The notes beneath the pieces were generated by a model. The model was given only the letters and a program-made list of their open reading frames with translations, was not told the DNA's origin and made no database searches. From contig JAIUOH010000019.1 of NCBI GenBank assembly GCA_020161315.1, positions 1 through 59,675 on the forward strand: a stretch of DNA of 59,675 nt, given 5' to 3'. The DNA is from Actinomycetota bacterium. GTDB taxonomy: Bacteria; Actinomycetota; Actinomycetes; Actinomycetales; Microbacteriaceae. This document shows positions 9,435 through 23,912 of this stretch, in pieces. Numbering within the stretch: the first letter of the stretch is position 1; every line of letters starts with the position of its first letter. A program made the position numbers and the translations under genes.

Positions 9435-9449
9435 AACTGTTATACAGTT
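9435..9449. promoter_or_regulatory. GntR-type operator (AACTGT-TAT-ACAGTT) at the FAD/Fe-S dehydrogenase promoter
   Basis: A palindrome with 6-base arms and a 3-base spacer that overlaps a TATACA sequence, a likely -10 element, 57 bases upstream of the GTG at 9506. The same core recurs at 23839-23851 and 23900-23912 and, degenerate, at 16295-16309, all beside genes of the same catabolic block, so it is assigned to the GntR regulator at 16356. Confidence 0.65.
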
Positions 9450-9505
9450 AGTCGATATGGGAGCCGGGATCTCGCCCGCGCCGCACCGCCAATGAGGAGG
9501 AACCC

Positions 9506-12373
9506 GTGGGAGTCACGCAGCTAATCGATGAGTTGCAGGCCAGCGGGGTCGAGGTGGACGCGTCGCCGCGCCGCCTCATGGAGTACTCCTACGACGCCTC
9601 GAACTACCGACTGCAGCCCGGGGCCGTGGTGTTTCCGCGCACCGCAGACCACTGCCGAGAGGTGTTGCGCGCCGCCCGTGATGCAGGCATGCCTGTGACG
9701 TTTCGTGGCGGCGGCACCTCGATGGCGGGCAACGCGGTGGGCGAGGGCGTCATCGTTGACCTGTCGAGGCGCCTGCGCGCGGTCGACGGGATCGATCGCG
9801 AGTCGCGCACCGTCTGGGTAGACGCAGGCGTCGTCATGAGCGAGCTGCGCAGCACTGTCGAGAAGCTCACCGCGGGCGAGCTGACCTTCGCGCCCGACCC
9901 ATCATCGATGACCCGTGCAACCATCGGCGGCTCGATCGGCAACGATGCCTGCGGCAACCACTCGGTCGAATACGGTCGCACCTCGCATCACGTGCACGAG
10001 ATCGAGCTGCTGACCGCCGACGGTGCCCACCTGATCGCGGCGCCGGGCGGGCTGCGCGCCTTCGACCTGAGCGATACGTATGCGCTCGACAGGGCCGAGC
10101 GCCTGAACGAGGCGCTCGGGGTGCTGCGCGGCACGCACCTCGCGGCCCTACGAACCGAGCTCGACACCATCCCGCGCCAGGTCTCGGGCTATCACCTCGC
10201 CAACCTGCTCCCCGAAAACGGTTTCAACGTGGCCCGCGCGCTCGCCGGCAGCGAGGGCACCTGTGCGCTGATCCTGCGCGCAAAAATGGGCCTGGTGCCG
10301 AAGCCGGGGCCAACCGCCCTGCTCTGCGTCGGCTATGGCAACACCGTCGATTCGGCGCGAGACGTTATGACGATGCTCGAGGCAAAACCCAGTGCGATCG
10401 AGGGCCTGAACTCGACGATCGTTGAGATTATGCGGCACCGCCGCGGCGCCGAAAGCGTTGCCGGCCTGCCCCAGGGCGTCGCCTACGTGATGGTCGAGTT
10501 CTCGGCAGACACCATCGAAGCTGCGGCAGACCGCTGCCGCGCGCTCGTCGAGCGGTTGCGCGAAGCGGGGCGCATGAGCGATTTCGTGATTGCGACAAGC
10601 GACGAGGATCGCGCCAAGCTGTGGCGGGTGCGCGAAGATGGGGCGGGCCTCACCTCAAAGCAGCTCGACGGCAGACAGACCTGGCCAGGCTGGGAAGACT
10701 CGGCAGTGGCACCCGAGCGCCTGGCCGACTATCTCGCAGAGCTACTGCCCGTGATCGAGGAGCACGGCTACCAAGCGTCGATGTACGGACACTTCGGTGC
10801 CGGCTGCGTGCACATGCGACTCGATTTTGAGTTTCGAAGCGAAGAAGGGCGCGCAAACTTCGAGTCGTTCATGCGCCGGGCGGCAGAGATTGTGGTGCGT
10901 CACGGAGGTTCGCTCTCTGGCGAGCACGGCGACGGCCGGGCCCGCGGTGAACTGCTTGAGCTCATGTACTCGTCCGAGCTGCTCGGCATGTTTCGCGAGT
11001 TCAAGAATATTTGGGACCCGCAGGGAATGCTGAACCCGGGCATCATTGTCGATCCCGCGCCCTTCACCGAAGCGCTCGCACTCGTCGACCTGCCAGACCC
11101 CGTGGTTGCAATAGGTGACCACGCGAGCGGCATCCTCGGTGCGTTTGTCGGTAACTCGCACGCCTGCATTGGTGTGGGGCGCTGTCGCGCGACCTCGGGC
11201 GGCTTCATGTGCCCGAGTTACCGCGCGACAAAAGACGAGAAAGACTCGACGCGCGGCCGCGCGCGCGTGCTGCAAGAGCTCGCTCGCGGCAACGGGACAG
11301 TTGCCGGCGGCTGGGCCGTGCCAGAGGTGCGCGAGGCGCTTGATCTTTGCCTGTCGTGCAAGGCGTGCTCGACCGACTGCCCGACCGGGGTCGACATGGC
11401 CGAGGCGAAGTCTGAGCTGATCAACGACCACTACCGCGGCAAGCTGCGCCCGTTTACCCATTACTCGATCGGGTGGCTGCCGCGTTGGCTGCCGCTGCTC
11501 ACCCGGGTCAGCACGCTCGCGAACTGGGGGGCAAAGCTCGCTCCCGCTCGCTGGGTCGCAGACAAGCTCGGCATCAGCGCTCGCCGCAAGCTGCCGGCCT
11601 TCAAACCACACCGCGACTACGCTGCGCAGGTGCGCGAGGCCGAGTTCTCGGCAGAGGGTGACACGCTGCTCTTCGTCGACAGCTTTACCAAGGCGTTTCG
11701 ACCAGAGGTGGTTTCGGCCGCCGCGCGCGTGCTGCGAGACACGGGCGCAGAAGTCGGCTGCACGCCCGATGCCTGCTGCGGGCTGACCTGGGTCTCGACA
11801 GGGCAGCGTGACGGCGCCGCCAAGCGCCTCTCGAATCTTGTCGAGAAGCTTGATGACGGCACCGACCGCAGCATTGTGGTGCTCGAGCCGAGTTGTGCCG
11901 CGACCATTCGCGACGATGGGCCGAAGCTCGTGCCTGGTGAAGCCTCGAAGCGCGTGGCGGCGCGCGTGCGCAGCTTCTCGGTTGCGGTTGATGAGGCCAT
12001 TGGCAAGGGGTGGCGCCCCACCGCACCGGCGCCCCCCGAAGCGGTGCTGCAGACGCACTGTCACGAGCACGCCGCGTTTGGCCCTGCGGCACAGCGCCGG
12101 GTGCTGCGCGCCTGGGGCGTGCCGAAGGTGAGCGAATCGTCGTCGTGCTACGGAGTTGCGGGCAACTTCGGGTTTGAATCCGAACACTTCGATACCTCGA
12201 TGCAGGTGGCCGAGCACTCGATCATTCCCGCGATTGCGGCGGGAGGCGACGACGCGCTGATCTTGACCGACGGCTTCAGCTGCGCCATGCAGGTCTCGCA
12301 GGTTGCCCCACTGCGGGCAAGCGAGCACCTCGCCATCGCGCTTGACCCGGAGCGCGAGAAGCCCGCTGAGTAG
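9506..12373 (+). CDS. FAD-binding / 4Fe-4S D-2-hydroxyacid dehydrogenase (D-lactate/D-2-hydroxyglutarate type)
   Basis: Single-chain flavo-iron-sulfur dehydrogenase of 955 residues. Domains in order: PCMH-type FAD binding (about 35-215, with FRGGGTSMAGNAVGEG and GGSIGNDACGNHSVEYG), FAD-oxidase C-terminal domain (about 250-535, with YGHFGAGCVHMRLDF and GSLSGEHGDG), ferredoxin-like clusters (CIGVGRC and CLSCKACSTDCP, Cys 615-625) and a CCG-type C-terminal domain (DACCGLTW, SSCYGVAG). This is the YdiJ/Dld-II-like layout, which oxidises D-2-hydroxyacids and passes electrons to the respiratory chain. GTG start is fixed by GAGGAGG at 9492-9500. The substrate is not determined by sequence; the GntR-type operator upstream links it to the kinase/phospho-lyase and TRAP genes. 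Confidence 0.9.
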   Translation: MGVTQLIDELQASGVEVDASPRRLMEYSYDASNYRLQPGAVVFPRTADHCREVLRAARDAGMPVTFRGGGTSMAGNAVGEGVIVDLSRRLRAVDGIDRESRTVWVDAGVVMSELRSTVEKLTAGELTFAPDPSSMTRATIGGSIGNDACGNHSVEYGRTSHHVHEIELLTADGAHLIAAPGGLRAFDLSDTYALDRAERLNEALGVLRGTHLAALRTELDTIPRQVSGYHLANLLPENGFNVARALAGSEGTCALILRAKMGLVPKPGPTALLCVGYGNTVDSARDVMTMLEAKPSAIEGLNSTIVEIMRHRRGAESVAGLPQGVAYVMVEFSADTIEAAADRCRALVERLREAGRMSDFVIATSDEDRAKLWRVREDGAGLTSKQLDGRQTWPGWEDSAVAPERLADYLAELLPVIEEHGYQASMYGHFGAGCVHMRLDFEFRSEEGRANFESFMRRAAEIVVRHGGSLSGEHGDGRARGELLELMYSSELLGMFREFKNIWDPQGMLNPGIIVDPAPFTEALALVDLPDPVVAIGDHASGILGAFVGNSHACIGVGRCRATSGGFMCPSYRATKDEKDSTRGRARVLQELARGNGTVAGGWAVPEVREALDLCLSCKACSTDCPTGVDMAEAKSELINDHYRGKLRPFTHYSIGWLPRWLPLLTRVSTLANWGAKLAPARWVADKLGISARRKLPAFKPHRDYAAQVREAEFSAEGDTLLFVDSFTKAFRPEVVSAAARVLRDTGAEVGCTPDACCGLTWVSTGQRDGAAKRLSNLVEKLDDGTDRSIVVLEPSCAATIRDDGPKLVPGEASKRVAARVRSFSVAVDEAIGKGWRPTAPAPPEAVLQTHCHEHAAFGPAAQRRVLRAWGVPKVSESSSCYGVAGNFGFESEHFDTSMQVAEHSIIPAIAAGGDDALILTDGFSCAMQVSQVAPLRASEHLAIALDPEREKPAE

Positions 12374-12424
12374 CGCGGTGTGGGCCAGCTCGCTCGCGTG
12401 TGCGCGAACTGGAATGATGGGTAC

Positions 12425-13621
12425 ATGACCAATGCCGCCGCACGCCCGCGCAATCTCGCGCTAACGCTCGAGCGGCTGCTTGAGGCAGGTCAACTCACTC
12501 GGAGCGAGCTCATCTCTGAGACCGGTCTGAGCAAGGCGAGCGTCGCAAGGCTGGTCACCGAGCTTGAGCAGGCGGGGCTTGTCGAAACGCGCGGCACCGA
12601 CGCGTCGGCTGGGCCGGGTCGGCGCTCGAACGGGCTGGGGGTGCCGAGTTCTCTCGGGCACGTCATTGGTCTGAGCTTCGGCCTGCGCAGTAGCCACGCC
12701 ATTGCGCTCGATCTCTCTGGCCGTACGCTTGGCACGCGGCTTGAGCCGACACCCACGTTCGCCAGTGGAGGCGTCGCGATCGAGTGGGCCGCGGGGTTGC
12801 TTCGCGAGTTTGCCGTGTCGCTCGAAGGCGGTGGCGACACCCTTGGGGTCTGCGTCGCACTGCCCGGCCGGGTGCGAAGCGGCGACTCGATCTCGACCCT
12901 GCCAGCACCGCTCGATGGCCTGCCAGAGCACGGGTTTGCGGCGACGCTCGAGGCCGAGAGGGGTGTGCCGGTATCGCTTGCAACCGACGCCGACATGGCA
13001 CTCACCGGTGTCACCGCGCTAGGGCACCTCGAAGCCGACACCTCGGCCGTGCTGTTCACGCTGAGCACCGCGCTTACCGTCGCAACGCGCACGCGACTCG
13101 GTGTGGTGAGGCCGCGCTCGGCTGCCCTCGGCGACTTTGCGGCGCTGCCGTTTGCCGGGGCCGGGGTCGAGGCTGGGGCTGTCGGGCGAGACGCCGACGC
13201 CGCCGAGCGCTTGGGCACGATGACACTCGGCTCGGTGCTGTCTGTGCGCGGGCTTCTGGGTGTGATGGCATCGCTCGGCATCGAGATCGGCGATACCAAC
13301 GAGCTATGGCTGGGCGAGTCGGCCGAGCTCGATCGCGTGAGACGACTATTCACCGAGGCACTCGTGGCGGCCATCTTTGTCGCCGCCGTCACGACCGACC
13401 CTCATGCCTGCGTGATTACGGGCCGGCTCGCCCCGCTCGCCGCGCGTGTGCTGCCCGAGCTGCGTGAGTTGCTCGCCGAGCGACTCGATGACGCGCCAAG
13501 GCTGATTGTGCCCGGTACCGATGACAACGGGCTCACCACGGCCCTCGGCGCGGCACAGACCGCGCGCGGGCGCGAGTGCGAGCGGCTGGTTGCCCGAGTG
13601 CGTGCCGGCCTGCTGCCGTAG
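12425..13621 (+). CDS. ROK-family transcriptional regulator with degenerate kinase domain
   Basis: 398 residues. An N-terminal winged helix-turn-helix (LTRSELISETGLSKASVARLV-like region, about residues 22-75) precedes a sugar-kinase-like ROK domain. The ROK domain is eroded: the usual GxGxG phosphate loop reads STALTVATRT, the GEIGH segment reads GDFAALPF and the CxCGxxGC zinc motif is absent, so kinase activity is unlikely. ATG 12425 is preferred over upstream codons because it starts the usual short tail before the HTH. It follows the dehydrogenase by 51 bases on the same strand and may be cotranscribed. Ligand unknown. Confidence 0.8.
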   Translation: MTNAAARPRNLALTLERLLEAGQLTRSELISETGLSKASVARLVTELEQAGLVETRGTDASAGPGRRSNGLGVPSSLGHVIGLSFGLRSSHAIALDLSGRTLGTRLEPTPTFASGGVAIEWAAGLLREFAVSLEGGGDTLGVCVALPGRVRSGDSISTLPAPLDGLPEHGFAATLEAERGVPVSLATDADMALTGVTALGHLEADTSAVLFTLSTALTVATRTRLGVVRPRSAALGDFAALPFAGAGVEAGAVGRDADAAERLGTMTLGSVLSVRGLLGVMASLGIEIGDTNELWLGESAELDRVRRLFTEALVAAIFVAAVTTDPHACVITGRLAPLAARVLPELRELLAERLDDAPRLIVPGTDDNGLTTALGAAQTARGRECERLVARVRAGLLP

Positions 13622-13711
13622 CAACGAGAAGGCCGCCGCCCCATCGCGAGCGCGACGGTGGCGACGGCCGATACCTTGCCGCCGGTAGTATCGGCAGCGG
13701 CATCACTGGGC

Positions 13712-15055
13712 TCAGCTCAGGTGCAGTTTCGCAACCTCTGCGAGCGTCTCGACCATGCGGGTCACGTCAGCCTCGTCGAAGGCGAGCGGCGGGCGCACCT
13801 TCAGCACATTGACGTCTTTCGCGGCACCGCTGATCAGCACGCGGCGCTCGCGCATGGCGTTGATGATCCTGCTTGTGCGCTCTCGGTCTGGGGTGCGGGT
13901 GTCTAGGTTTTCGACGATCTCGACGGCGAGCACCAGGCCGTCTCCGCGCACGTCGGCCACGTGGGGTGAGCCTGCGAGCACCTCGCGCACGCCCTCGCGC
14001 AGCAGCCCACCGATGCGGTCAACCCGCTCGGGCACACCCTCTGACTCGAGCACGTCGAGCACCGCCGCGCCGGCCGCAATCGGCACCGAGGAGCCGCCAA
14101 ATGTGTTGAAGTAGCGCACCTTTTCGCCGAAGTCTCGTGCGACTTCGGGGCGAAACACGACGCCCGAGAGCGGAATGCCGTTGCCCATCGGCTTGCCGAG
14201 GGTGACGATGTCGGGCACCACGCCCTGGTACTGGAAGCCCCACATCTTCGAGCCGAGGCGGGCGAGGCCGGCCTGCACCTCGTCAGCAATGAAGACGCCG
14301 CCGGCCGCGTGTACCTCGTCAATAACTGCCTGAAGCCAGCCGGTCTCGTTGACGAAGATACCGTCGCTCATGAACGAGAGGTCAAAGATCAGGCCCGCAA
14401 GCCCGAAGCCGTGACGGCGCAGCTCGCCGATCGCGCGGCGCACCTCGCCAACCATGTGCTGTTCGAGGGTGAGGCCAGCGGGCACGAGCGCGGGGTTTGG
14501 TGGATCCATCGTGCGCACGTTTGCTCCGAGGGGCGAGCCCTCGCCGAGCGTGGGCGAGATCGAAGAAACCTCGCGGGTCAGCCCGTGGTAGGCGTGCTTC
14601 GAAACGATGAAGCCCTCGTTGCCGGTGTGGTGCCTGGCGACGCGCATTGCGAGGTCGTTGGCCTCAGAGCCGCTGCACGCGAAGGTGACGCGCTGCAGCT
14701 CGTCTGGAAAGTACGAGATAAGGCGCTCTGCGTAATCGACAAGAGCGGTCTGCGCGTAGCGGGTATTGGTATTGAGGGTGGCGGCCTGCTTCGCGATGGC
14801 GTCGGCCACGTGCGGGTGGCAGTGGCCCATCGACGGCACGTTGTTGTACGCGTCGAGGTAGTCGTTGCCATCGGCGTCGAAGAGGTGAGCGCCGCGGCCA
14901 CGCACGAAACCGACCGGCTCGTTGTACAGCAGCATGTAGCCGGGGCCGAGCACGTTCATGCGGCGCTCAACGGTGGCGCGCAGGGCTGGGTCGAGCGAGC
15001 CGAGGCTGTCGGGGTCGAAGCGGCCGGGAACGTCTTTTGCGCCGAGTGAAACCAT
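13712..15055 (-). CDS. Class III PLP enzyme of the phospho-lyase type (ETNPPL/PHYKPL-like)
   Basis: 447-residue PLP enzyme. Fold-type I features are ACSGSEAND (about 126-133), IADEVQAG (Asp258/Glu259) and TLGKPMGNG with the Schiff-base Lys288. The C-terminal segment VLISGAAKDVNVLKVRPPL is typical of the ethanolamine-phosphate / 5-phosphohydroxylysine phospho-lyase subgroup, which removes ammonia and phosphate from O-phosphorylated amino alcohols to give an aldehyde, rather than of true transaminases. It lies 23 bases downstream of an APH-type kinase on the same strand, which is the gene pairing expected for phosphorylate-then-eliminate catabolism. An ordinary omega-aminotransferase cannot be excluded. 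Confidence 0.82.
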   Translation of the reverse strand: MVSLGAKDVPGRFDPDSLGSLDPALRATVERRMNVLGPGYMLLYNEPVGFVRGRGAHLFDADGNDYLDAYNNVPSMGHCHPHVADAIAKQAATLNTNTRYAQTALVDYAERLISYFPDELQRVTFACSGSEANDLAMRVARHHTGNEGFIVSKHAYHGLTREVSSISPTLGEGSPLGANVRTMDPPNPALVPAGLTLEQHMVGEVRRAIGELRRHGFGLAGLIFDLSFMSDGIFVNETGWLQAVIDEVHAAGGVFIADEVQAGLARLGSKMWGFQYQGVVPDIVTLGKPMGNGIPLSGVVFRPEVARDFGEKVRYFNTFGGSSVPIAAGAAVLDVLESEGVPERVDRIGGLLREGVREVLAGSPHVADVRGDGLVLAVEIVENLDTRTPDRERTSRIINAMRERRVLISGAAKDVNVLKVRPPLAFDEADVTRMVETLAEVAKLHLS

Positions 15056-15078
15056 GGTGCTGCTGCCTTTCGTGGGGG

Positions 15079-16164
15079 TTAGATGTTGGTCGAAGCGGGC
15101 TTCGCGAGATCGCGCGCCGTGAGCAGGTGTGCAGCGCCCGCGTCGATGCCGTAGTTCAGGGTGTTCTCGATGCGCGCCCAGTCTTCGCGGGCGTGTGAGC
15201 GCAAGTATTCGGCGCGCTCTGGCACGTGCACGATGCGCCAGTTCGTGACGAGGGCGCGCAGCGCGACCCGGGCGAGGCTCGCGATCGCCAGCAGGCGAAT
15301 CTCGTCTTCGCTGAGCGCAAAGACCTCGAGATAGCCGACGAGCATGTCGCGCGAGGTCTGCCAGGGGTTTGCCGGGGCGGGCAACAGGTGGTTTGCAAAG
15401 AGCACGGCCGGGTCAAAGATCACCGGGTTTACCTGCACATCACCGAAGTCGATTACGCCGGTGAGGAATTGCGACGAGTCGGGGTCGACGACTGCGTTGA
15501 ACGCGCTGAGATCGCCGTGCAGCACCTGGGTGCGCAGTTCGTGGCGAACCGGTTCGAGGCGCTCACGATAGAGGGCGAAGATCTCTTCGGCCATCGCGCG
15601 GCGCTCCGGGTCGGCTTCGTAGTCGAGCAGCGGCTCAAGCGTCATGAACTCGGCAATGTTCCAGACAAGGGATCGCTCGAGACCCTCGTGCGCAAACCCC
15701 TGTAGGGCGAGGTCAACCCTGCCGAGCATTGCGCCGACCTGCACGAGCTGGCTCGGTGAGGGGGTGGCCTCGCCGAGCATGGTGCCTGGAATGAACTCGA
15801 GTACTCGAAGTGCGCCGAGGTAGTCACCTGATTCATGGTGCAGGATGCGATGATTTGCGCCGTCACGGGTGCGCAGCACCGATTGCACGGGAATGCCCGG
15901 GTCGCGGCTTTGCACCCAGTCGATCACATCGGTCTGGCAGAGTACGACTGGGAGCGGCTCGTCTTTCGGCGATACTTTCACGAGGTAGTCGCCAGTGTCG
16001 CGGCGCAGGCGAAAGGTGCTGTCTTTTTCGGTGTCGATGCGCTGCAGCTCGCCGTCGAGCCCGTAGTGCTCGCGGAGCGCGGCATAGACGAGCGATTCGT
16101 CGATCGGCTCGTGGCGGCTGGTGAGGCCGCTCTCTTCAAATAGCTGCTGCATCTGCTGCGACAT
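15079..16164 (-). CDS. APH-family phosphotransferase, candidate amino-alcohol/hydroxylysine kinase
   Basis: 361 residues with ATG at 16164 behind AAGGAG; the longer frame starting at 16233 has no ribosome site. Aminoglycoside phosphotransferase-like kinase fold: nucleotide-binding strands with DYLVKVSPK, catalytic loop HGDLSAFN and metal site GVIDFGD. The family includes choline, homoserine, ethanolamine and hydroxylysine kinases. The very next gene encodes a phospho-lyase-type PLP enzyme, so the likely product is an O-phospho amino alcohol. It is divergent from the GntR regulator across 191 bases that contain the degenerate operator at 16295-16309. Confidence 0.82.
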   Translation of the reverse strand: MSQQMQQLFEESGLTSRHEPIDESLVYAALREHYGLDGELQRIDTEKDSTFRLRRDTGDYLVKVSPKDEPLPVVLCQTDVIDWVQSRDPGIPVQSVLRTRDGANHRILHHESGDYLGALRVLEFIPGTMLGEATPSPSQLVQVGAMLGRVDLALQGFAHEGLERSLVWNIAEFMTLEPLLDYEADPERRAMAEEIFALYRERLEPVRHELRTQVLHGDLSAFNAVVDPDSSQFLTGVIDFGDVQVNPVIFDPAVLFANHLLPAPANPWQTSRDMLVGYLEVFALSEDEIRLLAIASLARVALRALVTNWRIVHVPERAEYLRSHAREDWARIENTLNYGIDAGAAHLLTARDLAKPASTNI

Positions 16165-16294
16165 GGGGCTCCTTGGTGCGCACTGGCTTCGGGTTGAGGT
16201 CGGGCGACAGCCCAACTCTACAATTAGTCTCATAATGAGTCAATCACCCTGGGGTGATTTGTCTCAAACGCGCGCCGATCCTCGAAAAATGACT

Positions 16295-16309
16295 TACTGT
16301 AATACAAGA
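16295..16309. promoter_or_regulatory. Degenerate GntR-type operator (TACTGT-AAT-ACAAGA)
   Basis: The left arm and spacer match the perfect copies at 23839 and 23900; the right arm deviates. It sits 47 bases upstream of the GntR start and between the divergent kinase and regulator genes, a typical autoregulatory position. Confidence 0.5.
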
Positions 16310-16355
16310 TGACACTTAAGTTGATACGCTTGAGCTGTTCATAGAAGGAGGAGAA

Positions 16356-17015
16356 GTGGCAACGAGGCAATCCCTTCAGACAATTTCTGTCGCAGAGGCC
16401 GCGACGACGCGCTTGCGCGAGAGCCTCTTTGCGGGCGCTTTTGAGGCGGGCGAAGAGATCAAAGACACCCGCGTCGCAGACGACTACGGCATAGCCCGCC
16501 CCACCGCGCGCATTGCGGTGCAGCAGCTCATCAACGAGGGCATGCTGGTTCGCGAGCCGGGCTACAGCGCGCGGGTGCGCACATTTGACCCCGATCAGGT
16601 GCGTGACATTTTTCGCGTGCGCAAGATCATTGAGCTCGATGCGGTGCGAGCGGCCAAGGCAAGCGGTGCGCCGCTGGATGCCGTTCGTGCGGCCATGGAG
16701 CACTTCACCGACCTCGGTGAGGCGCCGGCTTGGTCGCGGGTTGCCGAGGCTGACGCCGCCTTTCACCAGGCGGTCGTGGAGGCAGGTGGCTCGGAGCGAC
16801 TACAGTCGTACTTCGAAGGGCTGACCAACGAGATTCGCTTGCTGCTCGCGCTGCCGGCAACGCACTTCGGCCGCGGCGAATCACCGTATGAAGAGCACGA
16901 AGAGCTGTTTTTGCTGCTGCAGGGTGATGCCTCGATGAAGCAGCTTGAAAAAGCGTGGGAGTACCACCTCGACGAGTCGCGCGACTTTCTCGTGCGCCAT
17001 CTTTCAGAGGCATGA
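16356..17015 (+). CDS. GntR-family (FCD domain) transcriptional regulator
   Basis: 219 residues; GTG start behind the strong site AAGGAGGAG. The N-terminal winged helix (about residues 10-75) has DTRVADDYGIARPTARIAVQ as helix-turn-helix. The C-terminal all-helical FCD domain (about 85-210) includes FRVRKIIELDAVRAA and paired His residues (AAFHQAV and a later EEHEELFLLL), the usual metal- and acid-binding pocket of FadR-subfamily regulators. Its ligand is presumably an organic acid intermediate. It probably binds the ACTGTnnnACAGT sites at 9435, 16295, 23839 and 23900. The stop codon overlaps the ATG of the SDR gene. Confidence 0.88.
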   Translation: MATRQSLQTISVAEAATTRLRESLFAGAFEAGEEIKDTRVADDYGIARPTARIAVQQLINEGMLVREPGYSARVRTFDPDQVRDIFRVRKIIELDAVRAAKASGAPLDAVRAAMEHFTDLGEAPAWSRVAEADAAFHQAVVEAGGSERLQSYFEGLTNEIRLLLALPATHFGRGESPYEEHEELFLLLQGDASMKQLEKAWEYHLDESRDFLVRHLSEA

Positions 17016-17794
17016 GTGGGGGCAGTTGCGTGAGCAGCGCAAACGAGAACGCCCCGGTCGCGCTGGTGACGGGTGCCACATCTGGCATCGGTATCGATAT
17101 TGCGCGGCGACTTGTGAGCGATGGGTTTCGAGTGGCGGTCAGCGGGCGCTCCCGGGCGCGCGGGGCGCAGGTTGTTGCGGAGCTTGGCGCGGCCACGAGC
17201 TTCGTACAGGCCGACCTGCTGCTGCCGGGGGCGGCAACGGGGTTGATTGATCAGACCCTGGCTGAGTTTGGTCGCATCGACGTGCTCGTGAATAACGCCG
17301 CGATTGACCACACAAACGACCTGCTCGAAGTGGGTGAGGCTGAGATTCGCCAGACGTTCGAGTCAAACACTTTTGCCCCGATGAACCTGCTGATCGCGGC
17401 GGCCCGGGCGATGCGCGCGCAGGGCGAGGGTGGCGCCATCATCAACGTCACCTCGCGACTCGCGAGCATCGGTGTGCCCACCATGGGCATCTACAGCGCG
17501 AGCAAGGGTGCGCTGCTGGCGTTCACCAAGGCGGCCGCGATCGACCTCGCCCAGTACGGCATTCGCGTGAACGCGGTGGCCCCGGGCATGACCCGCACGC
17601 CGCTCTACGAGGAGTGGCTTGAGGGCCTGGCCGATCCCGCAGCCGAGGCAGAAAAGGTGGCCGCGGCTATTCCGCTCGGACGAATCGCGACACCCGGTGA
17701 CGTAGCGGCAACTGTGGCGTTTCTCGCGAGCCCCGGTGCTGCGTACCTCACCGGTGTATCGATTCCTGTTGACGGCGGCTATCTCGCCAAGTAG
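17012..17794 (+). CDS. Short-chain dehydrogenase/reductase (SDR)
   Basis: Classical SDR of 260 residues. Nucleotide-binding TGATSGIG lies at about 20-27, NNAA follows strand 4, and the catalytic Tyr161 and Lys165 sit in YSASKGALL with an upstream Ser in NVTSR. The C-terminal segment GAAYLTGVSIPVDGGY is the standard SDR end. ATG 17012 overlaps the GntR stop (ATGA); GTG 17030 is an alternative start. Cotranscription with the regulator implies a role in the same pathway, for instance oxidising or reducing a hydroxy intermediate, but the substrate cannot be read from the sequence. Confidence 0.87.
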   Translation: MSGGSCVSSANENAPVALVTGATSGIGIDIARRLVSDGFRVAVSGRSRARGAQVVAELGAATSFVQADLLLPGAATGLIDQTLAEFGRIDVLVNNAAIDHTNDLLEVGEAEIRQTFESNTFAPMNLLIAAARAMRAQGEGGAIINVTSRLASIGVPTMGIYSASKGALLAFTKAAAIDLAQYGIRVNAVAPGMTRTPLYEEWLEGLADPAAEAEKVAAAIPLGRIATPGDVAATVAFLASPGAAYLTGVSIPVDGGYLAK

Positions 17795-17836
17795 TTCGCC
17801 GGTTCATGTTCGAGAGCGCGAAGAAAGCTAGAAGTG

Positions 17837-19126
17837 ATGGGTCAGGGTAGCAATTCGGCCGCGAAAAAGCGGGCCGCTCCGCGCACGGGCAGAATTATGC
17901 TCTACGTGAGCAAGCGAGAGCGAAACCGTTTGAAGCGGTTGCTGCGTGTTGAGATGGTCGGCGGCATTCTTGTGATGATTGCCGCGGTGATTGGGTTTGC
18001 GCTCGCGAACAGCCCGGCAAGTGAGTGGTACTTTTCGCTTCGCGACACGAGGATCGGTCCCGAGGCCCTGCACCTCAACCTGACGTTGGGGCAGTGGGCG
18101 TCTGACGGGCTGCTTGCGGTCTTCTTCTTTCTTGTGGGACTCGAACTGAAACGCGAGTTCGTCGAGGGGGCACTGAGTCGTTTCTCGACCGCAATCGTGC
18201 CCGTGGTTGCCGCCGCCGGCGGCGTCATCACACCCGCACTGATTTACCTCGCGGTGAATGCGGGGCGTGAGTCGGTACATGGTTGGGCGATCCCGACGGC
18301 AACCGACATCGCGTTCGCGGTTGCCGTGCTCGGATTGATCGCGCCGCGGGTTCCGCTCGCGCTGCGCATTTTCTTGCTGACGCTCGCGGTGGTCGATGAC
18401 TTCATTGCGATCGGCATCATCGCGTTCTTCTATACGAACGGCATTCAGTTCTTGCCTCTCATCGCGGCTATCGTGCTTGTGGGTCTGTACGCGCTGCTCA
18501 CCCGCCGGTTTGCTGGCTGGTATCACTCGCGTGCCTGGGCGGCGTGGCTCACGCTGCTGCCCATCGGCATTGTCGTGTGGACGCTGATGCACGCCTCTGG
18601 TGTGCACGCGACCATTGCGGGCGTTCTGCTCGCGTTTACCGTGCCGGTCGCGATGATGCCTCGCGGCGTCGACGAGCACGACCCCAGCGACCCGAGCACG
18701 CGGCCGCACCACCTGGCGGAGCATTTTGGCTACAGGTTTGGCCCGATTTCGACGGGCATTGCCGTGCCGGTGTTCGCGTTCTTCGCCGCCGGGGTCGCGA
18801 TTAAGGGTTCATCAGGGTTCATGACTGACCCCGTGACAATCGGCATTGTGCTCGGCCTGGTACTCGGCAAGCCTATTGGCATCGTGCTGACCACGCTCGC
18901 GCTCACAAAGTGGACCGGCGCAGAGCTCGACCCAGGGGTAAAGCTGCGCGAGCTCATCGGTGTTGGCGCGCTTGCCGGCGTCGGTTTCACGGTTGCGATG
19001 CTCGTTGCGGAGTTGAGCTTCGATGACGTGGCAACTGCCGACACGGCGAGGCTCGCGGTGATGACTGGGTCGGTGATCGCGGTTGTCGTTGCGGCACTGT
19101 TTCTGGTGCGGCCGCGACGGGGCTGA
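17837..19126 (+). CDS. nhaA: Na+/H+ antiporter NhaA
   Basis: About 429 residues with eleven to twelve predicted helices. Diagnostic NhaA segments are present: FFFLVGLELKREF, ATDIAFAVAVLGL and VVDDFIAIGIIAFFY with the ion-binding Asp pair, and a C-terminal GVGFTVAMLVAELSF. ATG 17837 is spaced nine bases from AGAAAG; GTG 17834 is an equally framed alternative. It exchanges external protons for cytoplasmic sodium across the cell membrane. It follows the SDR by 42 bases on the same strand; the TRAP transporter in this block is of a type that usually imports with sodium, so an energetic link is conceivable but inferred. Confidence 0.92.
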   Translation: MGQGSNSAAKKRAAPRTGRIMLYVSKRERNRLKRLLRVEMVGGILVMIAAVIGFALANSPASEWYFSLRDTRIGPEALHLNLTLGQWASDGLLAVFFFLVGLELKREFVEGALSRFSTAIVPVVAAAGGVITPALIYLAVNAGRESVHGWAIPTATDIAFAVAVLGLIAPRVPLALRIFLLTLAVVDDFIAIGIIAFFYTNGIQFLPLIAAIVLVGLYALLTRRFAGWYHSRAWAAWLTLLPIGIVVWTLMHASGVHATIAGVLLAFTVPVAMMPRGVDEHDPSDPSTRPHHLAEHFGYRFGPISTGIAVPVFAFFAAGVAIKGSSGFMTDPVTIGIVLGLVLGKPIGIVLTTLALTKWTGAELDPGVKLRELIGVGALAGVGFTVAMLVAELSFDDVATADTARLAVMTGSVIAVVVAALFLVRPRRG

Positions 19127-19507: not shown

Positions 19508-19827
19508 ATGCGAGGCAGCGAGTTGAGCGAATTTCTCGACGGCATTGTGCGCTGCCTGCGTGATCAAGGTACCGATGACGCGGGGGTTGAAGTCAAAGAA
19601 AGCGCAACAAAGCTCTGATTTCTGAACATCGTAAGTGGATACGCGACCTGACTGATCGTGGTCTTGATGCTCACGAAGACGCTGCGCTCATCATCGTGCG
19701 GCGTGAGGGACGCATCTCGGTTGAAGGTTTGCGCGAAACTCTTCGTATCGATTCTGACGAAGCCAGGGGTATTCTTGTTCGATTCCGAGATGAGGGTGTG
19801 CTGAAACGTGGGGCTGAGAACACGTAG
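19508..19827 (+). pseudogene. Remnant of an AlbA_2/Schlafen-type ATP-binding protein gene
   Basis: Two fragments of one gene remain. The first (ATG 19508 to TGA 19618, 36 residues) reads SEFLDGIVRCLRDQGTDDAG then VEVKESATKL, the N terminus expected of putative DNA-binding AlbA_2/AAA_4 proteins. The second, in a different frame (19621 to TAG 19827, 68 residues), reads as a helical C-terminal winged-helix end with HEDAALIIVRREGRISVEGL. Members are usually 450-550 residues, so an internal deletion has removed most of the gene and shifted the frame. Such genes are often accessory. The assignment rests on remembered family style, so it is moderate. Confidence 0.55.
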
Positions 19828-19852
19828 GAATAGCAAAGGGGCAAGCTCGACT

Positions 19853-20725
19853 TCACCAGCGTGCCCGCGGCGCCCAGTTCGCCGGGTCGATGCTGCCGTT
19901 ATACATGGGCAGATGGATCGGCGCATCGCCGTCGACAAACTGGCCCCACAGGCGGTTGAGCCCTGCCGTGCCGAAGGTGCGCACCTGCTCAACTCGCGCG
20001 TCGGCGATCGTTGCAACGATAGTCGCCTCTTCGGTGCCCGCGTCGGCGAGCACCTCGCCCTCAGCGTCGATGATGAGGCTTCGCCCCCGACCGAAGGGGG
20101 CCGCGCAGTTGACCGAGACAAACATGCACTGATTCGTGATTGCGTGCGCGCGTGCGAGCACGAGCTCTTGCGCGCGATCGGCGGCCCGCGACTGCGCGAT
20201 GTTCAGAATAACCTCGGCGCCGAGCCAGGCGAGTTGCCTCGAGTGCTCTGGAAACCAGGTGTCGTAGCAGTTCGAGAGGCCGATGTGCCCGAGCCCCTCT
20301 GCAGCGAGCACCTCAAACTGTGTGCCCGGCGCAACCTTTTCGTAGGGGCGCCACGGAAACATCTTGCGGTAGCTCGCCCTGAGCGAGCCGCCCGGGTCAA
20401 AGATGAGCTGGGTGTTGTAGTGCGCGCCGGATTCGTCGACCTCGATGATGCTGCCGGGGCACAACCAGATGCCGTGGTGTGCGGCGATGGTGCCAAGCGC
20501 CGCTACGAAGGGTGAGTCGAGCCGCTGCGCAGATGACCGCAGCGCGGCCTCGCGATCCTCAAGAGGCAGGTGCTCAAGCCCAACGAGGTGCAGTTCGGGG
20601 TAGCTGAGCAGCGAGATCTCTGGAAAGCAGGCGAGGGTGGCCGCAACGTCTGCGGCAAAGGCGGTGAGTGGTGTCTCGAACGGCAACGGAATCCGCTGGG
20701 CAACCCCAATGGTGAGATCTGACAC
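19853..20725 (-). CDS. Carbon-nitrogen hydrolase (nitrilase superfamily amidase)
   Basis: Thiol amidohydrolase of about 290 residues. The catalytic triad is visible: Glu44 in LSYPELHLVG, Lys121 in ASYRKMFPW and Cys153 in GLSNCYDTWFPE. GTG 20725 is chosen because AAGGGCGG lies at proper distance; ATG 20749 would add eight residues without a ribosome site. It is 90 bases downstream of the TRAP transporter genes on the same strand, separated by a hairpin, so it may be expressed by read-through and act on an imported amide or an amide intermediate. The substrate class (aliphatic amide, N-carbamoyl or omega-amide) is undetermined. Confidence 0.85.
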   Translation of the reverse strand: MSDLTIGVAQRIPLPFETPLTAFAADVAATLACFPEISLLSYPELHLVGLEHLPLEDREAALRSSAQRLDSPFVAALGTIAAHHGIWLCPGSIIEVDESGAHYNTQLIFDPGGSLRASYRKMFPWRPYEKVAPGTQFEVLAAEGLGHIGLSNCYDTWFPEHSRQLAWLGAEVILNIAQSRAADRAQELVLARAHAITNQCMFVSVNCAAPFGRGRSLIIDAEGEVLADAGTEEATIVATIADARVEQVRTFGTAGLNRLWGQFVDGDAPIHLPMYNGSIDPANWAPRARW

Positions 20726-20765
20726 GTGCAACCGCCCTTCTTGCAGCATGATAGCTGCAGATACG

Positions 20766-20802
20766 ACGGGGCCCTCCGTGCCGTTGGCGCGGAGGGCCCC
20801 GT
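20766..20802 (-). terminator. Hairpin downstream of the TRAP transporter genes
   Basis: Perfect 13-base arms ACGGGGCCCTCCG / CGGAGGGCCCCGT with an 11-base loop, 14 bases after the DctM stop. No T-run follows on the minus strand, so it may be a partial terminator or RNA stabiliser before the hydrolase gene. Confidence 0.6.
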
Positions 20803-20815
20803 GATCCTCTTCGAG

Positions 20816-22093
20816 CTACTTCATAAGGCTCGGTAGGAACGTGCTGATCTGCGGCACAAACGTGATGACCACCAGCACCGCGATGAGCGCAATCACGTAC
20901 GGAAGCGCCGCGAGGCTGACCTTCTCGATTGACAGGCCGCTGATCGCCGAGGCGACGTTGAGATTGTCACCAACCGGCGGCGTCGCAAAGCCGATCATGG
21001 AAGCCATGATCATGATGATGCCGAAGTGCACCGGATCCATGCCAAAGCCCGTGACGACGGGCACGAGAATCGGGGCCATCAAGATGATGCCGGCCAGTGT
21101 CTCCATGAACATGCCCATGAAGAGCAGCAGCACGAGAATCACGAGCAGGATCACCCAGAACGGCACCGCGAGCGAACCGAGCCAGCCTGACACGAGCATC
21201 GGTACGCGCTCCACCGTGAGGATGCGCGCGTAGGTCGATGCGGTTGCGATGATCACGAGGATCATGCCCGAGATGAGCAGGGTCGACTTGAACATCGTCG
21301 GAATATCGCTGCGCTTCGCCTCGCGGTAGACGAGGGTGAGTACGACGCTGTAGGCAACCGCGATGCCCGCGGCCTCGGTCGGGGTGAAGACGCCACCGTA
21401 GATGCCGCCAAGCACGACGATCGGCATGAGCAGGGTCCACTTGGCTCGCCACACGGCGGTCCAGCGTTCCTTCCAAGTGGCCTTTGGCACGCCGGTACCG
21501 AAGCCGCCCTTCTTGGCGTAGTAGCGGCTCACAAAGTAGAGCACGACCACAATGATCAGGCCGGGAATGAAGCCAGCCATGAACAGGTCACCGATTGAGG
21601 TGTTGGTGGTGATGCCGTAGATCACGAGCGGGATGCTCGGGGGGATCACGATGCCAACGCCACCCGCGGTCGCGAGCACGCCCGCGCTGTAGCCCTTGCT
21701 GTAGCCCTCGCGAATCATCGAGGGGATCATGATGCCGCCGATTGCCGCAACGGTCGCGGGGCCAGAGCCGCTGAGCATCGCGAACACCGTGGTTGCGAGC
21801 AGCGCGACGGCAGCGAGGCCGCCGGTGATGTGGCCGACGAATGCCTTTGCTACCTCGATGAGGCGGCGAGAGAGGCCGCCGTATTCCATGATCACGCCCG
21901 AGAGCACGAACAGGGGCACCGCGAGCAGCGGGTACGAGTCAACCGCGCCGAACATGGTTTGGGTGAGGTAGCTCACTGGGATCACGTTGGTGACGAGTAC
22001 CGCGAGCACCGAAGAGATGCCGAGCGCGAAGGCGATCGGCATGCCGATGATCAGCAGGATCGCGAAAACAATAAAGAGGAGTGCAATACCCAT
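20816..22093 (-). CDS. TRAP transporter large permease (DctM family)
   Basis: 425 residues with about twelve hydrophobic helices; typical DctM length. Family segments include GAVDSYPLLAVPLFVLSG near residue 50, SGSGPATVAAIGGIMIPSM near 110 and the C-terminal GFATPPVGDNLNVASAI. It forms the main ion-coupled translocation channel of a TRAP importer, usually driven by sodium. Starts at ATG 22093, two bases after the DctQ stop, so the two permease subunits are tightly coupled. Confidence 0.93.
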   Translation of the reverse strand: MGIALLFIVFAILLIIGMPIAFALGISSVLAVLVTNVIPVSYLTQTMFGAVDSYPLLAVPLFVLSGVIMEYGGLSRRLIEVAKAFVGHITGGLAAVALLATTVFAMLSGSGPATVAAIGGIMIPSMIREGYSKGYSAGVLATAGGVGIVIPPSIPLVIYGITTNTSIGDLFMAGFIPGLIIVVVLYFVSRYYAKKGGFGTGVPKATWKERWTAVWRAKWTLLMPIVVLGGIYGGVFTPTEAAGIAVAYSVVLTLVYREAKRSDIPTMFKSTLLISGMILVIIATASTYARILTVERVPMLVSGWLGSLAVPFWVILLVILVLLLFMGMFMETLAGIILMAPILVPVVTGFGMDPVHFGIIMIMASMIGFATPPVGDNLNVASAISGLSIEKVSLAALPYVIALIAVLVVITFVPQISTFLPSLMK

Positions 22094-22095
22094 GA

Positions 22096-22629
22096 TCAGT
22101 CGACCTCCAGCGGAGCCTTGGGAATAGGGGCATTGGGCTGCTTGATGATGTCAGCGAAGGCGAGCACTGTGTGCTGTGCGACGCGGAATGACATCAGCAG
22201 CATGCCGAGGGTCAGGCCGAAGTAGACGAACGACATCGGAATACGCGACGCGGCAGAGACCTGGCCGCTTGCTACTTGCTGCATGACCTGCTGCCACGAC
22301 AGCACGAGCATGAGCAGCAAGAACGCGAGCCAAAGCACAAACACCACGATGCGAATGACACGCTGAGCGATCGGTAGCTTCGACCCGATCAGATCGACGA
22401 TGACGTTGAACTTGACGTGGCGCAGGTACTTTACTGCGTAACTGCCGGCGATCCAGACGAACCACACGAGCGCGAAGCGGGCGATCTCTTCAGACCACAC
22501 GAGGGGCGCGCCCATGACGTAGCGCATGATGACCTGAGCTACGACAAGCACCGAGAAGATCACGAGCGCTGCCGAGGCGAGGTAGACCTCGACGTACTCG
22601 TCGAGGTGCCTGAGAATGCGTTTGAGCAT
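22096..22629 (-). CDS. TRAP transporter small permease (DctQ family)
   Basis: 177 residues, four predicted helices; the segment MRYVMGAPLVWSEEIARFAL is the DctQ hallmark between helices 1 and 2. Partner of DctM in the membrane. It starts at ATG 22629, 73 bases downstream of the binding-protein gene. Confidence 0.92.
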   Translation of the reverse strand: MLKRILRHLDEYVEVYLASAALVIFSVLVVAQVIMRYVMGAPLVWSEEIARFALVWFVWIAGSYAVKYLRHVKFNVIVDLIGSKLPIAQRVIRIVVFVLWLAFLLLMLVLSWQQVMQQVASGQVSAASRIPMSFVYFGLTLGMLLMSFRVAQHTVLAFADIIKQPNAPIPKAPLEVD

Positions 22630-22702
22630 AAGTGGACTTTCTAAAAGACGAAAAAGAAGTGCGGGCCCGCGCCTGGAAAGGCGAGAGCCCGCACGAAAGT
22701 GG

Positions 22703-23749
22703 CTACTTGATAGCGTCGAGGAAGGTGGTGTTGCCAGCTGCCTCGAGGATCGCCTTCAGCTTCTCGGTGTCGACCTTAGACGCGTTCTGCTCGTAGAACG
22801 GAACGGTTGCTTCGACCCATGCCTTGCGCTGTGCGGGCGAGACATCAGCAACGCTGCCGCCGGCCTCTTCGATCTTGGTGCGCACCTCATCGTTGATGCC
22901 AGCCTTCAGCTCGCGCAGCTTTACGATCATGTCGTCAGCGGCGGTCGTGATAATCTCCTGGTCCTCCTTGGGCAGGCCCTCGAGGAAGCTCTTGCTGATC
23001 AGGATGACCTCGGGGTCGTAGATCCAACGCAGCTCGGTGAGCTTCGAAGCGGGTTCGGTGAACTTGGCCGAGTAGAGCAGCTCGAAGGGGTTCTCAACGC
23101 CATCGACCACGCCCTGCTGCAGAGCGGTGAAGACCTCGGGGAACGCCATCGGGGTGGGTGCTGCGCCCATGCTCTCCCAGTACGCAATGTGCATCGGCAC
23201 CTGCATGGTGCGCAACTTTTTGCCCTTGATGTCTGCGGGCTCGACCACGGTGTCGGTGGTCATCGCGAGGTTGCGGAAGCCGTTCTCGCCCCAGCCGAGA
23301 GCGGTAAGGCCGCTCTCTTCGATGCCCGAGAGCATCTCGTCGCCGATCTCGCTGTCGAGCACCTTGTAGGCGGTCTCGGCATCTTCAAAGATGAAGGGGA
23401 AGTCGAAGACCTGCAGCGAATCGTCGAAGTTTGCGAGCACGCCCACCGAGGGGGCAGTCATCTCAAGGTTGCCGGCCTGAACTGCCTCAACCATTTCGCG
23501 CTCGCCACCGAGCTGGCTGTCCGGGTAGACCTCAACGGTGATGCGACCGTCTGAACGCTCGTTCACCAGCTCAGCGAAGTAGTCGTAGGCCTGGTTCTGC
23601 GTATCGCCAGCAGAAATCACGTTGCCGAACTTGATGGTGTAGCTCGAGCCTTCGGCAGCGCCGCCGCCGTTTCCGCCGGCGGGAGCGCATGCGCTGAGCC
23701 CCAGTGCGGCAATGGCTCCGAGCACAATCGCAGTCTTGCGCTTGAACAT
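22703..23749 (-). CDS. TRAP transporter substrate-binding lipoprotein (DctP family)
   Basis: 348 residues. The lipoprotein signal ends LGLSACAPAGG (Cys about 21), so it is anchored outside the membrane. DctP features: SAGDTQNQAYDYFAELVNER in the first lobe, GGEREMVEAVQAGNLEMT, and KKLRTMQVPMHIAYWESMG with the arginine that commonly binds the substrate carboxylate, followed by PMAFPEVFTALQQGVVDGVE. This indicates an organic acid or amino acid ligand. It is the first gene of the TRAP operon and is divergent from the semialdehyde dehydrogenase; two operator copies lie between them. Confidence 0.93.
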   Translation of the reverse strand: MFKRKTAIVLGAIAALGLSACAPAGGNGGGAAEGSSYTIKFGNVISAGDTQNQAYDYFAELVNERSDGRITVEVYPDSQLGGEREMVEAVQAGNLEMTAPSVGVLANFDDSLQVFDFPFIFEDAETAYKVLDSEIGDEMLSGIEESGLTALGWGENGFRNLAMTTDTVVEPADIKGKKLRTMQVPMHIAYWESMGAAPTPMAFPEVFTALQQGVVDGVENPFELLYSAKFTEPASKLTELRWIYDPEVILISKSFLEGLPKEDQEIITTAADDMIVKLRELKAGINDEVRTKIEEAGGSVADVSPAQRKAWVEATVPFYEQNASKVDTEKLKAILEAAGNTTFLDAIK

Positions 23750-23838
23750 TGAGAAACCTCCATTGGTTACGACTGGCCGACTGTCGGCCAGATAGCCAGA
23801 GGTGGTTGGCGAGGATCGTCAACCGGCTATGAGGCTTA

Positions 23839-23851
23839 CTGTAATACAGTT
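23839..23851. promoter_or_regulatory. GntR-type operator ACTGTAATACAGT (TRAP side)
   Basis: Perfect palindrome apart from the AAT spacer, 90 bases upstream of the DctP start, in the divergent promoter region. Identical in core to the copy at 23900. Confidence 0.7.
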
Positions 23852-23899
23852 TCACCGACAGTCGGACCATATTCTGGTATCGATTCGATAAACAGTGTT

Positions 23900-23912
23900 A
23901 CTGTAATACAGT
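23900..23912. promoter_or_regulatory. GntR-type operator ACTGTAATACAGT (dehydrogenase side)
   Basis: Second identical 13-base copy, 61 bases from the first, about six helical turns, which would allow a looped or cooperative complex controlling both divergent operons. Confidence 0.7.

What the first reader, a model, noticed from the sequence alone, without database searches (positions are those of the whole stretch)
9435..23912. A shared ACTGTnnnACAGT operator defines a probable GntR regulon across 14 kb
Two perfect 13-base copies (23839, 23900) lie between the divergent TRAP and semialdehyde dehydrogenase operons, a 15-base palindrome of the same core sits at the FAD/Fe-S dehydrogenase promoter (9435), and a degenerate copy lies in front of the GntR gene (16295). 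No copy was noticed elsewhere in the window. This ties a dehydrogenase, kinase, phospho-lyase, SDR, importer, semialdehyde dehydrogenase and aminotransferase into one unit.
Basis: partly seen in the sequence, partly recalled or inferred. Interest (0 to 1): 0.75.

Follow-up and report, generated by a model that had tools for sequence, protein, structure and literature searches.

The report
GntR repressor's operator unites catabolic cluster
A short DNA switch sequence found at the promoters of one gene cluster in a relative of Leucobacter is very probably the docking site of a neighbouring repressor protein, because related bacteria carry the switch together with that repressor beside similar catabolic genes; the nutrient it controls is still unknown.

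Summary
ACTGTNNNACAGT occurs exactly three times in the window (9436, 23838, 23900; 0.03 expected). The own 3.01 Mb genome has one further copy, inside a reading frame. A two-mismatch copy (16296) precedes the GntR gene and is conserved in Leucobacter UBA1945.

In 299 family genomes, ACTGTWATACAGT occurs in all four genomes with a close GntR orthologue (nine of eleven sites, all in the GntR locus) and in two of 295 others (Fisher p 4.6e-8, not corrected for kinship). In eight GntR-bearing genomes, 12 of 12 copies of TGTWATACAGTT lie at promoters of the cluster. The recognition-helix segment is conserved in the nine GntR sequences aligned.

The likeliest reading is an FCD/FadR-type repressor regulon. 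GntR and an FAD/Fe-S (R)-2-hydroxyacid-type dehydrogenase occur in all eight genomes; a class III aminotransferase was found in seven, a semialdehyde dehydrogenase in five (fetched stretches only). Uptake genes differ.

The substrate is unresolved; a hydroxylated GABA-like amino acid is my best guess. The hydroxylysine/HglS route fails because HglS was not found. A new regulon of a known kind; binding is untested.

The parts
9436..9448 (.). operator 1 (ACTGTTATACAGT), 64 bp (centre) upstream of the FAD/Fe-S dehydrogenase GTG
   Evidence: same position in UBA1945 with one side degenerate
16296..16308 (.). operator 2, degenerate (ACTGTAATACAAG), between divergent kinase and GntR genes
   Evidence: conserved with the right half also degenerate in UBA1945
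23838..23850 (.). operator 3 (ACTGTAATACAGT), dctP side of the divergent promoter region
   Evidence: conserved in UBA1945 L048
23900..23912 (.). operator 4 (ACTGTAATACAGT), semialdehyde dehydrogenase side, 62 bp from operator 3
   Evidence: UBA1945 has one exact site in this gap, not two
9506..12373 (+). FAD-linked oxidase + Fe-S (CCG) fusion, (R)-2-hydroxyacid dehydrogenase type
   Evidence: Pfam FAD_binding_4, FAD-oxidase_C, Fer4, CCG; nearest NCBIfam YdiJ 404.9 bits, below its cut-off of 1350
12380..13621 (+). ROK-family regulator downstream of the dehydrogenase
   Evidence: partial copy also next to the dehydrogenase in UBA1945
13712..15055 (-). class III PLP enzyme, phospho-lyase type
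   Evidence: best PDB match 5g4i phospholyase, 334.9 bits; then 6tor ethanolamine-phosphate phospho-lyase, 292.8
15079..16233 (-). APH-family small-molecule kinase
   Evidence: PF01636; best NCBIfam match is the N-terminal part of NF004799 (PRK06148), whose C-terminal part matches the neighbouring lyase
16356..17015 (+). GntR, FCD/FadR-type regulator, proposed repressor
   Evidence: PF00392 + PF07729; model pLDDT 85.7; FCD relatives by fold
17012..17794 (+). SDR oxidoreductase; an in-frame ATG at 17012 overlaps the GntR stop (ATGA), so probably co-transcribed
   Evidence: sequence; PF13561 on 17030-17791
17834..19126 (+). NhaA-type Na+/H+ antiporter reading frame (name given from sequence, no family scan), same strand after SDR
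   Evidence: 88% identical neighbour in UBA1945
19853..20749 (-). carbon-nitrogen hydrolase (amidase-like), last gene of the proposed TRAP operon
   Evidence: PF00795
20816..22093 (-). TRAP large membrane subunit (DctM; name given from sequence and position)
   Evidence: UBA1945 homologue
22096..22629 (-). TRAP small membrane subunit (DctQ; name given from sequence and position)
22703..23749 (-). TRAP substrate-binding protein DctP
   Evidence: PF03480; nearest PDB 4p9k/4pak, 4nq8, 4pdh, 4pdd
24025..25506 (+). succinate-semialdehyde dehydrogenase-like ALDH
   Evidence: TIGR01780 494.7 bits, cut-off 646.35
25604..26923 (+). GABA-aminotransferase-like class III enzyme
   Evidence: PRK06058 540.1 bits, cut-off 639
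23773..23791 (.). second, different palindrome (CTGGCCGACTGTCGGCCAG) just upstream of dctP; second operator or leader hairpin
   Evidence: exact GGYCGACYGTCGRCC once per genome in G000 and G678, both at this place

Best explanation
The FCD-family GntR protein encoded at 16356-17015 is the cognate regulator of ACTGTWATACAGT. As a dimer it probably sits on four operators at the cluster's promoters and represses: FAD/Fe-S dehydrogenase (+ROK); kinase + phospho-lyase; its own gene with SDR (+NhaA); TRAP importer + amidase; and semialdehyde dehydrogenase + aminotransferase. A small carboxylate from the pathway, coordinated by the FCD metal site (D133, H137, H181, H204), would release it. Shown: the sites, their near-confinement to this cluster, and their co-inheritance with this GntR in eight genomes. 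Inferred: binding, repression, operon extents, ligand. Biochemical meaning (inferred): the genes found in most of the loci are an (R)-2-hydroxyacid-type FAD/Fe-S dehydrogenase, a class III aminotransferase and, in five of eight, a semialdehyde dehydrogenase. Together they would turn a hydroxylated omega-amino acid into a hydroxydicarboxylate and then a 2-oxoacid. My best single guess is a hydroxylated GABA (such as 3-hydroxy-GABA), giving malate or succinate; about 25% for that substrate class.
For: Site counts vs chance. Co-occurrence: exact sites in 4 of 4 orthologue genomes vs 2 of 295 others (Fisher 4.6e-8). 12 of 12 TGTWATACAGTT copies in eight GntR genomes lie at cluster promoters; reversed-pattern control 1 copy. 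Specificity: in nine loci (180,038 bp) ACTGT gives 13 palindromes with 3-nt spacing, the 59 other orderings of the same letters give 0 or 1 each; spacings 0-2 and 4-11 give none. Segments GIARPTAR and VQQLINEG identical in all 9 GntR sequences aligned. GT-N3-AC spacing is the typical one of the FadR subfamily (PMC4494728 passages). FCD fold. D133/H137/H181/H204 invariant in 27 FCD sequences.
Against: No binding, expression or ligand data. The operator's outer bases (C..G) differ from the published FadR-subfamily consensus TKGT/ACMA. Two genomes without a close orthologue carry one exact site each; one (G268) is in front of an ABC operon followed by a different FCD GntR gene, so the core may not be unique to this regulator; the other (G052) showed no match to the window's genes nearby. 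At three mismatches the own genome has as many control matches (15) as matches (13). G679 has only degenerate full sites. Genomes are related (two of the four share a genus), so the Fisher value overstates independence. The window assembly has 5.29% estimated contamination.
Confidence: 0.8

Rival explanations
1. The operator belongs to another regulator, for example the ROK protein at 12380 or another FCD GntR of the genome.
For: A ROK gene lies in the cluster in the window and UBA1945; a different FCD GntR in G268 lies near one copy of the core.
Against: A ROK match was seen only in those two; the GntR is the only regulator gene known to me to be in all the orthologue loci (their other genes were not scanned exhaustively), and sites accompany it in eight of eight genomes. 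The loci were chosen by GntR, so this alone is not independent; the 299-genome scan is.
Confidence: 0.06
2. The regulon degrades 5-hydroxylysine: kinase and phospho-lyase give aminoadipate semialdehyde, then aminoadipate, 2-oxoadipate, D-2-hydroxyglutarate (HglS) and 2-oxoglutarate via the FAD/Fe-S dehydrogenase.
For: Kinase and phospho-lyase match the two ends of PRK06148/PRK06149; the dehydrogenase is nearest to the D-2-hydroxyglutarate dehydrogenase YdiJ model.
Against: HglS (PF07063) was not found in any of 4 genomes searched; the control rang in 2 of 14 genomes. No kinase homologue was found in the stretches of the other six genomes. YdiJ score is far below its cut-off.
Confidence: 0.07
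3. The regulon degrades ethanolamine or 1-amino-2-propanol through phosphorylation and phospho-lyase to an aldehyde.
For: Lyase is closest in the PDB to a phospholyase (5g4i) and to ethanolamine-phosphate phospho-lyase (6tor).
Against: Does not explain the 2-hydroxyacid dehydrogenase, the GABA-type aminotransferase, or a TRAP binding protein whose relatives bind carboxylates; kinase and lyase were not found outside the window and UBA1945.
Confidence: 0.15
4. The regulon takes up and degrades a pantoate-, erythronate- or pantothenate-like hydroxyacid or its amide: TRAP import, amidase, dehydrogenase on the (R)-hydroxyacid, aminotransferase on beta-alanine.
For: DctP is closest to 4p9k/4pak, 4nq8, 4pdh, 4pdd, which I recall as pantoate/erythronate complexes; PMC11668362 section 5 says that structures near the TRAP protein IseP hold pantoate or erythronate. 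An amidase follows the importer.
Against: [quoted passage not shown] Does not explain kinase/phospho-lyase; other loci have GABA-permease-, ProP- or amino-acid-ABC-type transporters.
Confidence: 0.1
5. The sites are chance palindromes or promoter elements without a dedicated regulator.
For: Two-mismatch copies in the window and three-mismatch copies in the genome are at chance level.
Against:: exact copies far above every control and tied to one gene cluster across genera.
Confidence: 0.01

Closest known systems
FadR-subfamily (FCD) GntR regulons (LldR, GlcC, DgoR, PdhR type)
   Same: FCD domain, palindrome with GT-3 nt-AC, divergent operons with single or double sites (PMC4494728 passages)
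   Different: Outer half-site base is C/G (ACTGT...ACAGT) instead of the TKGT/ACMA consensus; gene content matches none of the regulons in the passages I read
DhdR, D-2-hydroxyglutarate repressor of Achromobacter denitrificans
   Same: GntR repressor next to a D-2-hydroxyacid dehydrogenase gene; 13-bp inverted repeat (PMC8651671 passages); fold match to 9jpj
   Different: Operator is GTTATCAGATAAC; [quoted passage not shown] here a multi-operon catabolic cluster
HypR, hydroxyproline regulon of Streptomyces coelicolor
   Same: Actinobacterial FCD repressor with histidine metal site controlling a catabolic regulon (PMC6608401 passages)
   Different: Motif CTNTGC(A/C)ATGTCAC, symmetry unclear
PhnR-type (TIGR03338) phosphonate-associated GntR
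   Same: Best NCBIfam match of the window GntR (49.7 bits); the G268 site lies in front of an operon followed by such a GntR (89.4 bits)
   Different: Both far below the family cut-off of 271.5 bits

Membership tests
FadR subfamily of GntR regulators (FCD) | GntR winged-helix N-terminus plus FCD C-terminal domain | tested here: met
   PF00392 32.4 bits (cut-off 27) and PF07729 53.6 bits (cut-off 24.3)
FadR subfamily of GntR regulators (FCD) | All-helical effector domain of 6-7 helices | tested here: met
   Six helices after residue 78 in the model, pLDDT 85.7; top fold matches include several FCD regulators
FadR subfamily of GntR regulators (FCD) | Palindromic operator with GT-3 nt-AC | tested here: met
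   All 19 listed sites have TGT-N3-ACA (the search pattern itself requires it); independent spacing control
FadR subfamily of GntR regulators (FCD) | TKGT/ACMA boxes | tested here: not met
   K (T) and M (A) fit, but the outer base is C in 18 of 19 left and G in 16 of 19 right halves; the paper describes a common consensus and names exceptions
FadR subfamily of GntR regulators (FCD) | DNA binding and release by a carboxylate effector | not testable with these tools
   Metal-site residues D133, H137, H181, H204 invariant, no binding data
DhdR-type D-2-hydroxyglutarate regulon | Operator GTTATCAGATAAC | tested here: not met
   Sites are ACTGTWATACAGT
DhdR-type D-2-hydroxyglutarate regulon | Adjacent FAD 2-hydroxyacid dehydrogenase | tested here: inconclusive
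   Present, but a YdiJ-like Fe-S fusion; substrate unknown
HglS lysine/hydroxylysine route | 2-hydroxyglutarate synthase HglS (PF07063) | tested here: not met
   0 of 4 genomes (G000, G100, G274, G255), control positive in 2 of 14
Phospho-lyase (ethanolamine-phosphate type) | Sequence closer to characterised phospho-lyases than to aminotransferases | tested here: met
   5g4i 334.9 and 6tor 292.8 bits vs next 161.5 bits; activity not tested
YdiJ D-2-hydroxyglutarate dehydrogenase | NF049975 curated cut-off 1350 bits | tested here: not met
   404.9 bits

The most novel reading that the evidence does not exclude
The cluster encodes an undescribed catabolic route for a hydroxylated C4 omega-amino acid (3-hydroxy-GABA or 4-amino-2-hydroxybutyrate). 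Two branches, aminotransferase/semialdehyde dehydrogenase/(R)-hydroxyacid dehydrogenase via malate and (for 3-hydroxy-GABA) kinase/phospho-lyase via succinate semialdehyde, would be held together by one GntR and its operator. This regulator-operator-dehydrogenase core is shared by Leucobacter, Gulosibacter and Pseudoclavibacter while uptake systems are exchanged: TRAP, GABA-permease-like, ProP-like and periplasmic-binding-protein ABC genes each have an operator copy or near copy at their promoter; an amino-acid ABC in G255 lies in the cluster without an exact site of its own.
Probability: 0.2. Interest if true: 0.55.

Novelty: new member of a known kind. Interest (0 to 1): 0.4.

Why it matters
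It gives a precise regulator-operator pair with near-exclusive genomic confinement in the genomes sampled, so the pathway's members can be read off promoters and the unknown nutrient can be sought by ligand screening of one 219-residue protein. It also offers a case of uptake systems being exchanged beside a conserved operator.

Tried and rejected
Hydroxylysine/HglS route: HglS searched and not found in 4 genomes. D-2-hydroxyglutarate (DhdR) regulon: operator differs. Search for the operator core in print (four 11-base spellings: 28 papers, 20 listed): none of the 20 listed titles is about a GntR operator; I opened none, and 8 were not shown. A search for GntR orthologues across the order (396 genomes, E <= 1e-35) found only the window's own; the sample evidently did not include the three orthologue genomes. 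Plasmid search: 2 distant matches under 40% identity. The structure model of DctP was poor (pLDDT 40.7) and was not used for a fold search. Consensus promoter and terminator scan gave chance-level hits. Paper searches on the phospholyase (no paper) and on 4-amino-3-hydroxybutyrate (one unrelated paper listed) gave nothing useful; the hydroxylysine search listed one review and the PmiR search three papers, none of which I opened. One search was a mistaken alignment (a 10-base reference) and is not used.
Full report
Observation. The pattern ACTGTNNNACAGT is in the window three times without mismatch, at 9436, 23838 and 23900, against 0.03 expected. The fourth site of the finding is 16296-16308 with two mismatches; two-mismatch copies as such are at chance level in the window (11 found, 10.8 expected), so that site needs outside support. 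The whole genome of the window (3,012,743 bases, 74 contigs) has one further exact copy, C23:31050, inside a 301-aa reading frame and with a GC centre. With the longer pattern TACTGTAATACAGTW and up to three mismatches, the genome has 13 listed matches, 9 of them in the window (both strands counted) and 4 elsewhere with three mismatches each; the reversed control gives 15. So only the well-preserved copies carry signal.

Conservation of the sites with the regulator. The GntR (16356-17015) has close orthologues in 3 other genomes of 299 sampled from the family (61%, 60% plus a 53% paralogue, and 48% identity; the next matches by E-value are 33% and 34%). The same family sample of 299 genomes was scanned for ACTGTWATACAGT: 11 sites in 6 genomes. 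All 4 genomes with the orthologue have sites (9 of the 11), each on the GntR's contig within 15 kb of it; 2 of the 295 others have one site each. Fisher's exact test gives 4.6e-8, not corrected for relatedness (two of the four share a genus). That makes eight distinct genomes. A shorter pattern, TGTWATACAGTT, occurs 12 times in those eight genomes, at least once in each, and all 12 copies lie at promoters of this cluster (positions read; the reversed pattern has 1 copy). G679 (the 74% MAG) has only degenerate full sites.

Controls for specificity. In nine fetched loci of 180,038 bases, the half-site ACTGT in a palindrome with a 3-nt centre occurs 13 times, while the other 59 orderings of the same five letters occur 0 times (56 orderings) or once (3). 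Spacings of 0-2 and 4-11 give none. Two of the nine loci (L049, L052) have no exact copy, but near copies. In seven of the loci my crude gene calls cover 88-95% of the sequence, yet 19 listed sites have centres 9-133 bp from the nearest start that I entered (starts entered by hand, some of them BLAST boundaries; one site in L052 missed). That list was restricted to sites within 260 bp upstream of an entered start, so it shows distances, not that no site lies elsewhere; searches show the latter for exact copies.

The degenerate site. UBA1945 has TGACTTACTGTTATACAAAGTCAC in the same kinase-GntR gap where the window has TGACTTACTGTAATACAAGATGACAC. The left half is kept and the right half is degenerate in both, which argues for a genuine, weaker autoregulatory site. 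UBA1945 also has a perfect site in front of its SDR gene, where the window has none. In the window an SDR ATG (17012) overlaps the GntR stop, so the SDR probably shares the GntR transcript.

The regulator. It has GntR and FCD domains. The AlphaFold model (7-sequence alignment, pLDDT 85.7) matches FCD regulators by Foldseek, among them a Rhodococcus GntR (2hs5), PmiR, TM0439 and, lower down, DhdR. D133, H137, H181 and H204 are invariant among 27 sequences; three histidines in this fold form the metal site described for TM0439 and HypR (PMC6608401 passages), and the correspondence is my inference. The segments GIARPTAR and VQQLINEG are identical in all nine close sequences. The GT-3 nt-AC spacing is typical of the FadR subfamily, while the flanking C/G departs from its TKGT/ACMA consensus (PMC4494728 passages).

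What is regulated. In the window: FAD/Fe-S dehydrogenase (then ROK); kinase and phospho-lyase; GntR with SDR and NhaA-type gene; TRAP importer with a carbon-nitrogen hydrolase; semialdehyde dehydrogenase with a GABA-aminotransferase-like enzyme. UBA1945 has the same neighbours on two contigs. In the other six genomes the shared part is smaller. Next to GntR stands an FAD/Fe-S dehydrogenase of 66-78% identity (matched in two pieces in different frames, 72% and 81%, in G. sediminis). A class III aminotransferase opens the operon in five of the six (G100, G274, G255, G. sediminis, and RM46 on a contig end); none was found in the 8.9-kb contig of G679. An SSADH-like enzyme was found in G100, G274 and G. 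sediminis, not in the stretches of G255, G679 and RM46. A HAD hydrolase was found in four. Uptake genes differ: a GABA-permease-like gene divergent from pdxS and a ProP-like gene in G274, each with an exact site in front; an amino-acid ABC in G255, upstream of the site and without an exact one of its own; a periplasmic-binding-protein ABC behind a near copy, with biotin-carboxylase and CT_C_D genes, in RM46.

Mechanism. Shown: the sites, their near-confinement and their co-inheritance with this GntR. Inferred: binding, repression by promoter occlusion, release by a carboxylate. The two sites 62 bp apart at 23844 and 23906 could each serve one divergent operon or act together; UBA1945 has only one exact site there, so looping is not required.

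Substrate. The phospho-lyase is nearest to a phospholyase (5g4i) and to ethanolamine-phosphate phospho-lyase (6tor). The dehydrogenase resembles YdiJ, D-lactate and D-2-hydroxyglutarate dehydrogenases at low similarity. DctP is nearest to four TRAP proteins that I recall as erythronate/pantoate complexes; the paper on IseP states that structures related to IseP hold pantoate or erythronate, with the warning that most of these ligands were co-purified. A hydroxylated GABA would use most of the enzymes: aminotransferase and semialdehyde dehydrogenase to malate, the FAD enzyme on (R)-malate, and kinase plus phospho-lyase to succinate semialdehyde; SDR, amidase, HAD hydrolase and NhaA stay unexplained. 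This is chemistry by inference; no call tests it. The hydroxylysine route that I first favoured needs HglS, which was not found.

Novelty. The listing of papers that hold the core letters (28 papers, 20 shown) has no title about a GntR operator; the library holds only open-licence papers, so this does not prove absence from print. I rate it a new regulon of a known kind, well supported by comparative genomics and with an unidentified nutrient.

Noticed in passing
window 23773-23791; L048 about 9596-9613: A second, unrelated palindrome (CTGGCCGACTGTCGGCCAG; CGGTCGACCGTCGACCG in UBA1945) just upstream of dctP, with symmetric base changes; the pattern GGYCGACYGTCGRCC is exact only once per genome in both, at this place. 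With one mismatch allowed there are 10 and 15 matches in the two genomes against 4 and 5 in the control, and looser copies in the window are below expectation (2 vs 4.88). A second operator or a leader hairpin.
   Followed up: partly
G268:C44:6378 (L062 6378): Exact ACTGTAATACAGT in front of an ABC-permease operon followed by a different FCD-like GntR gene (TIGR03338 89.4 bits) and decarboxylase-like genes (the latter named from sequence); the operator core may be shared by a wider FCD clade.
   Followed up: partly
L045 14272: One operator lies between pdxS and a GABA-permease-like gene, as if cofactor (PLP) supply were co-regulated with the aminotransferase pathway.
   Followed up: no
L045 10892-11611 and 8364-10836: A second GntR copy (53% identical) beside tartrate/D-malate dehydrogenase-like and N-methyltryptophan-oxidase-like genes in the Pseudoclavibacter locus.
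   Followed up: partly
L048 3486: The SDR gene has its own perfect operator in UBA1945 but none in the window, where an ATG overlaps the GntR stop: gain or loss of an operator between close relatives.
   Followed up: yes
window 22703-23749: DctP-type binding proteins are sparse in the class: 9 of 246 sampled genomes at E <= 1e-30, own included.
   Followed up: no
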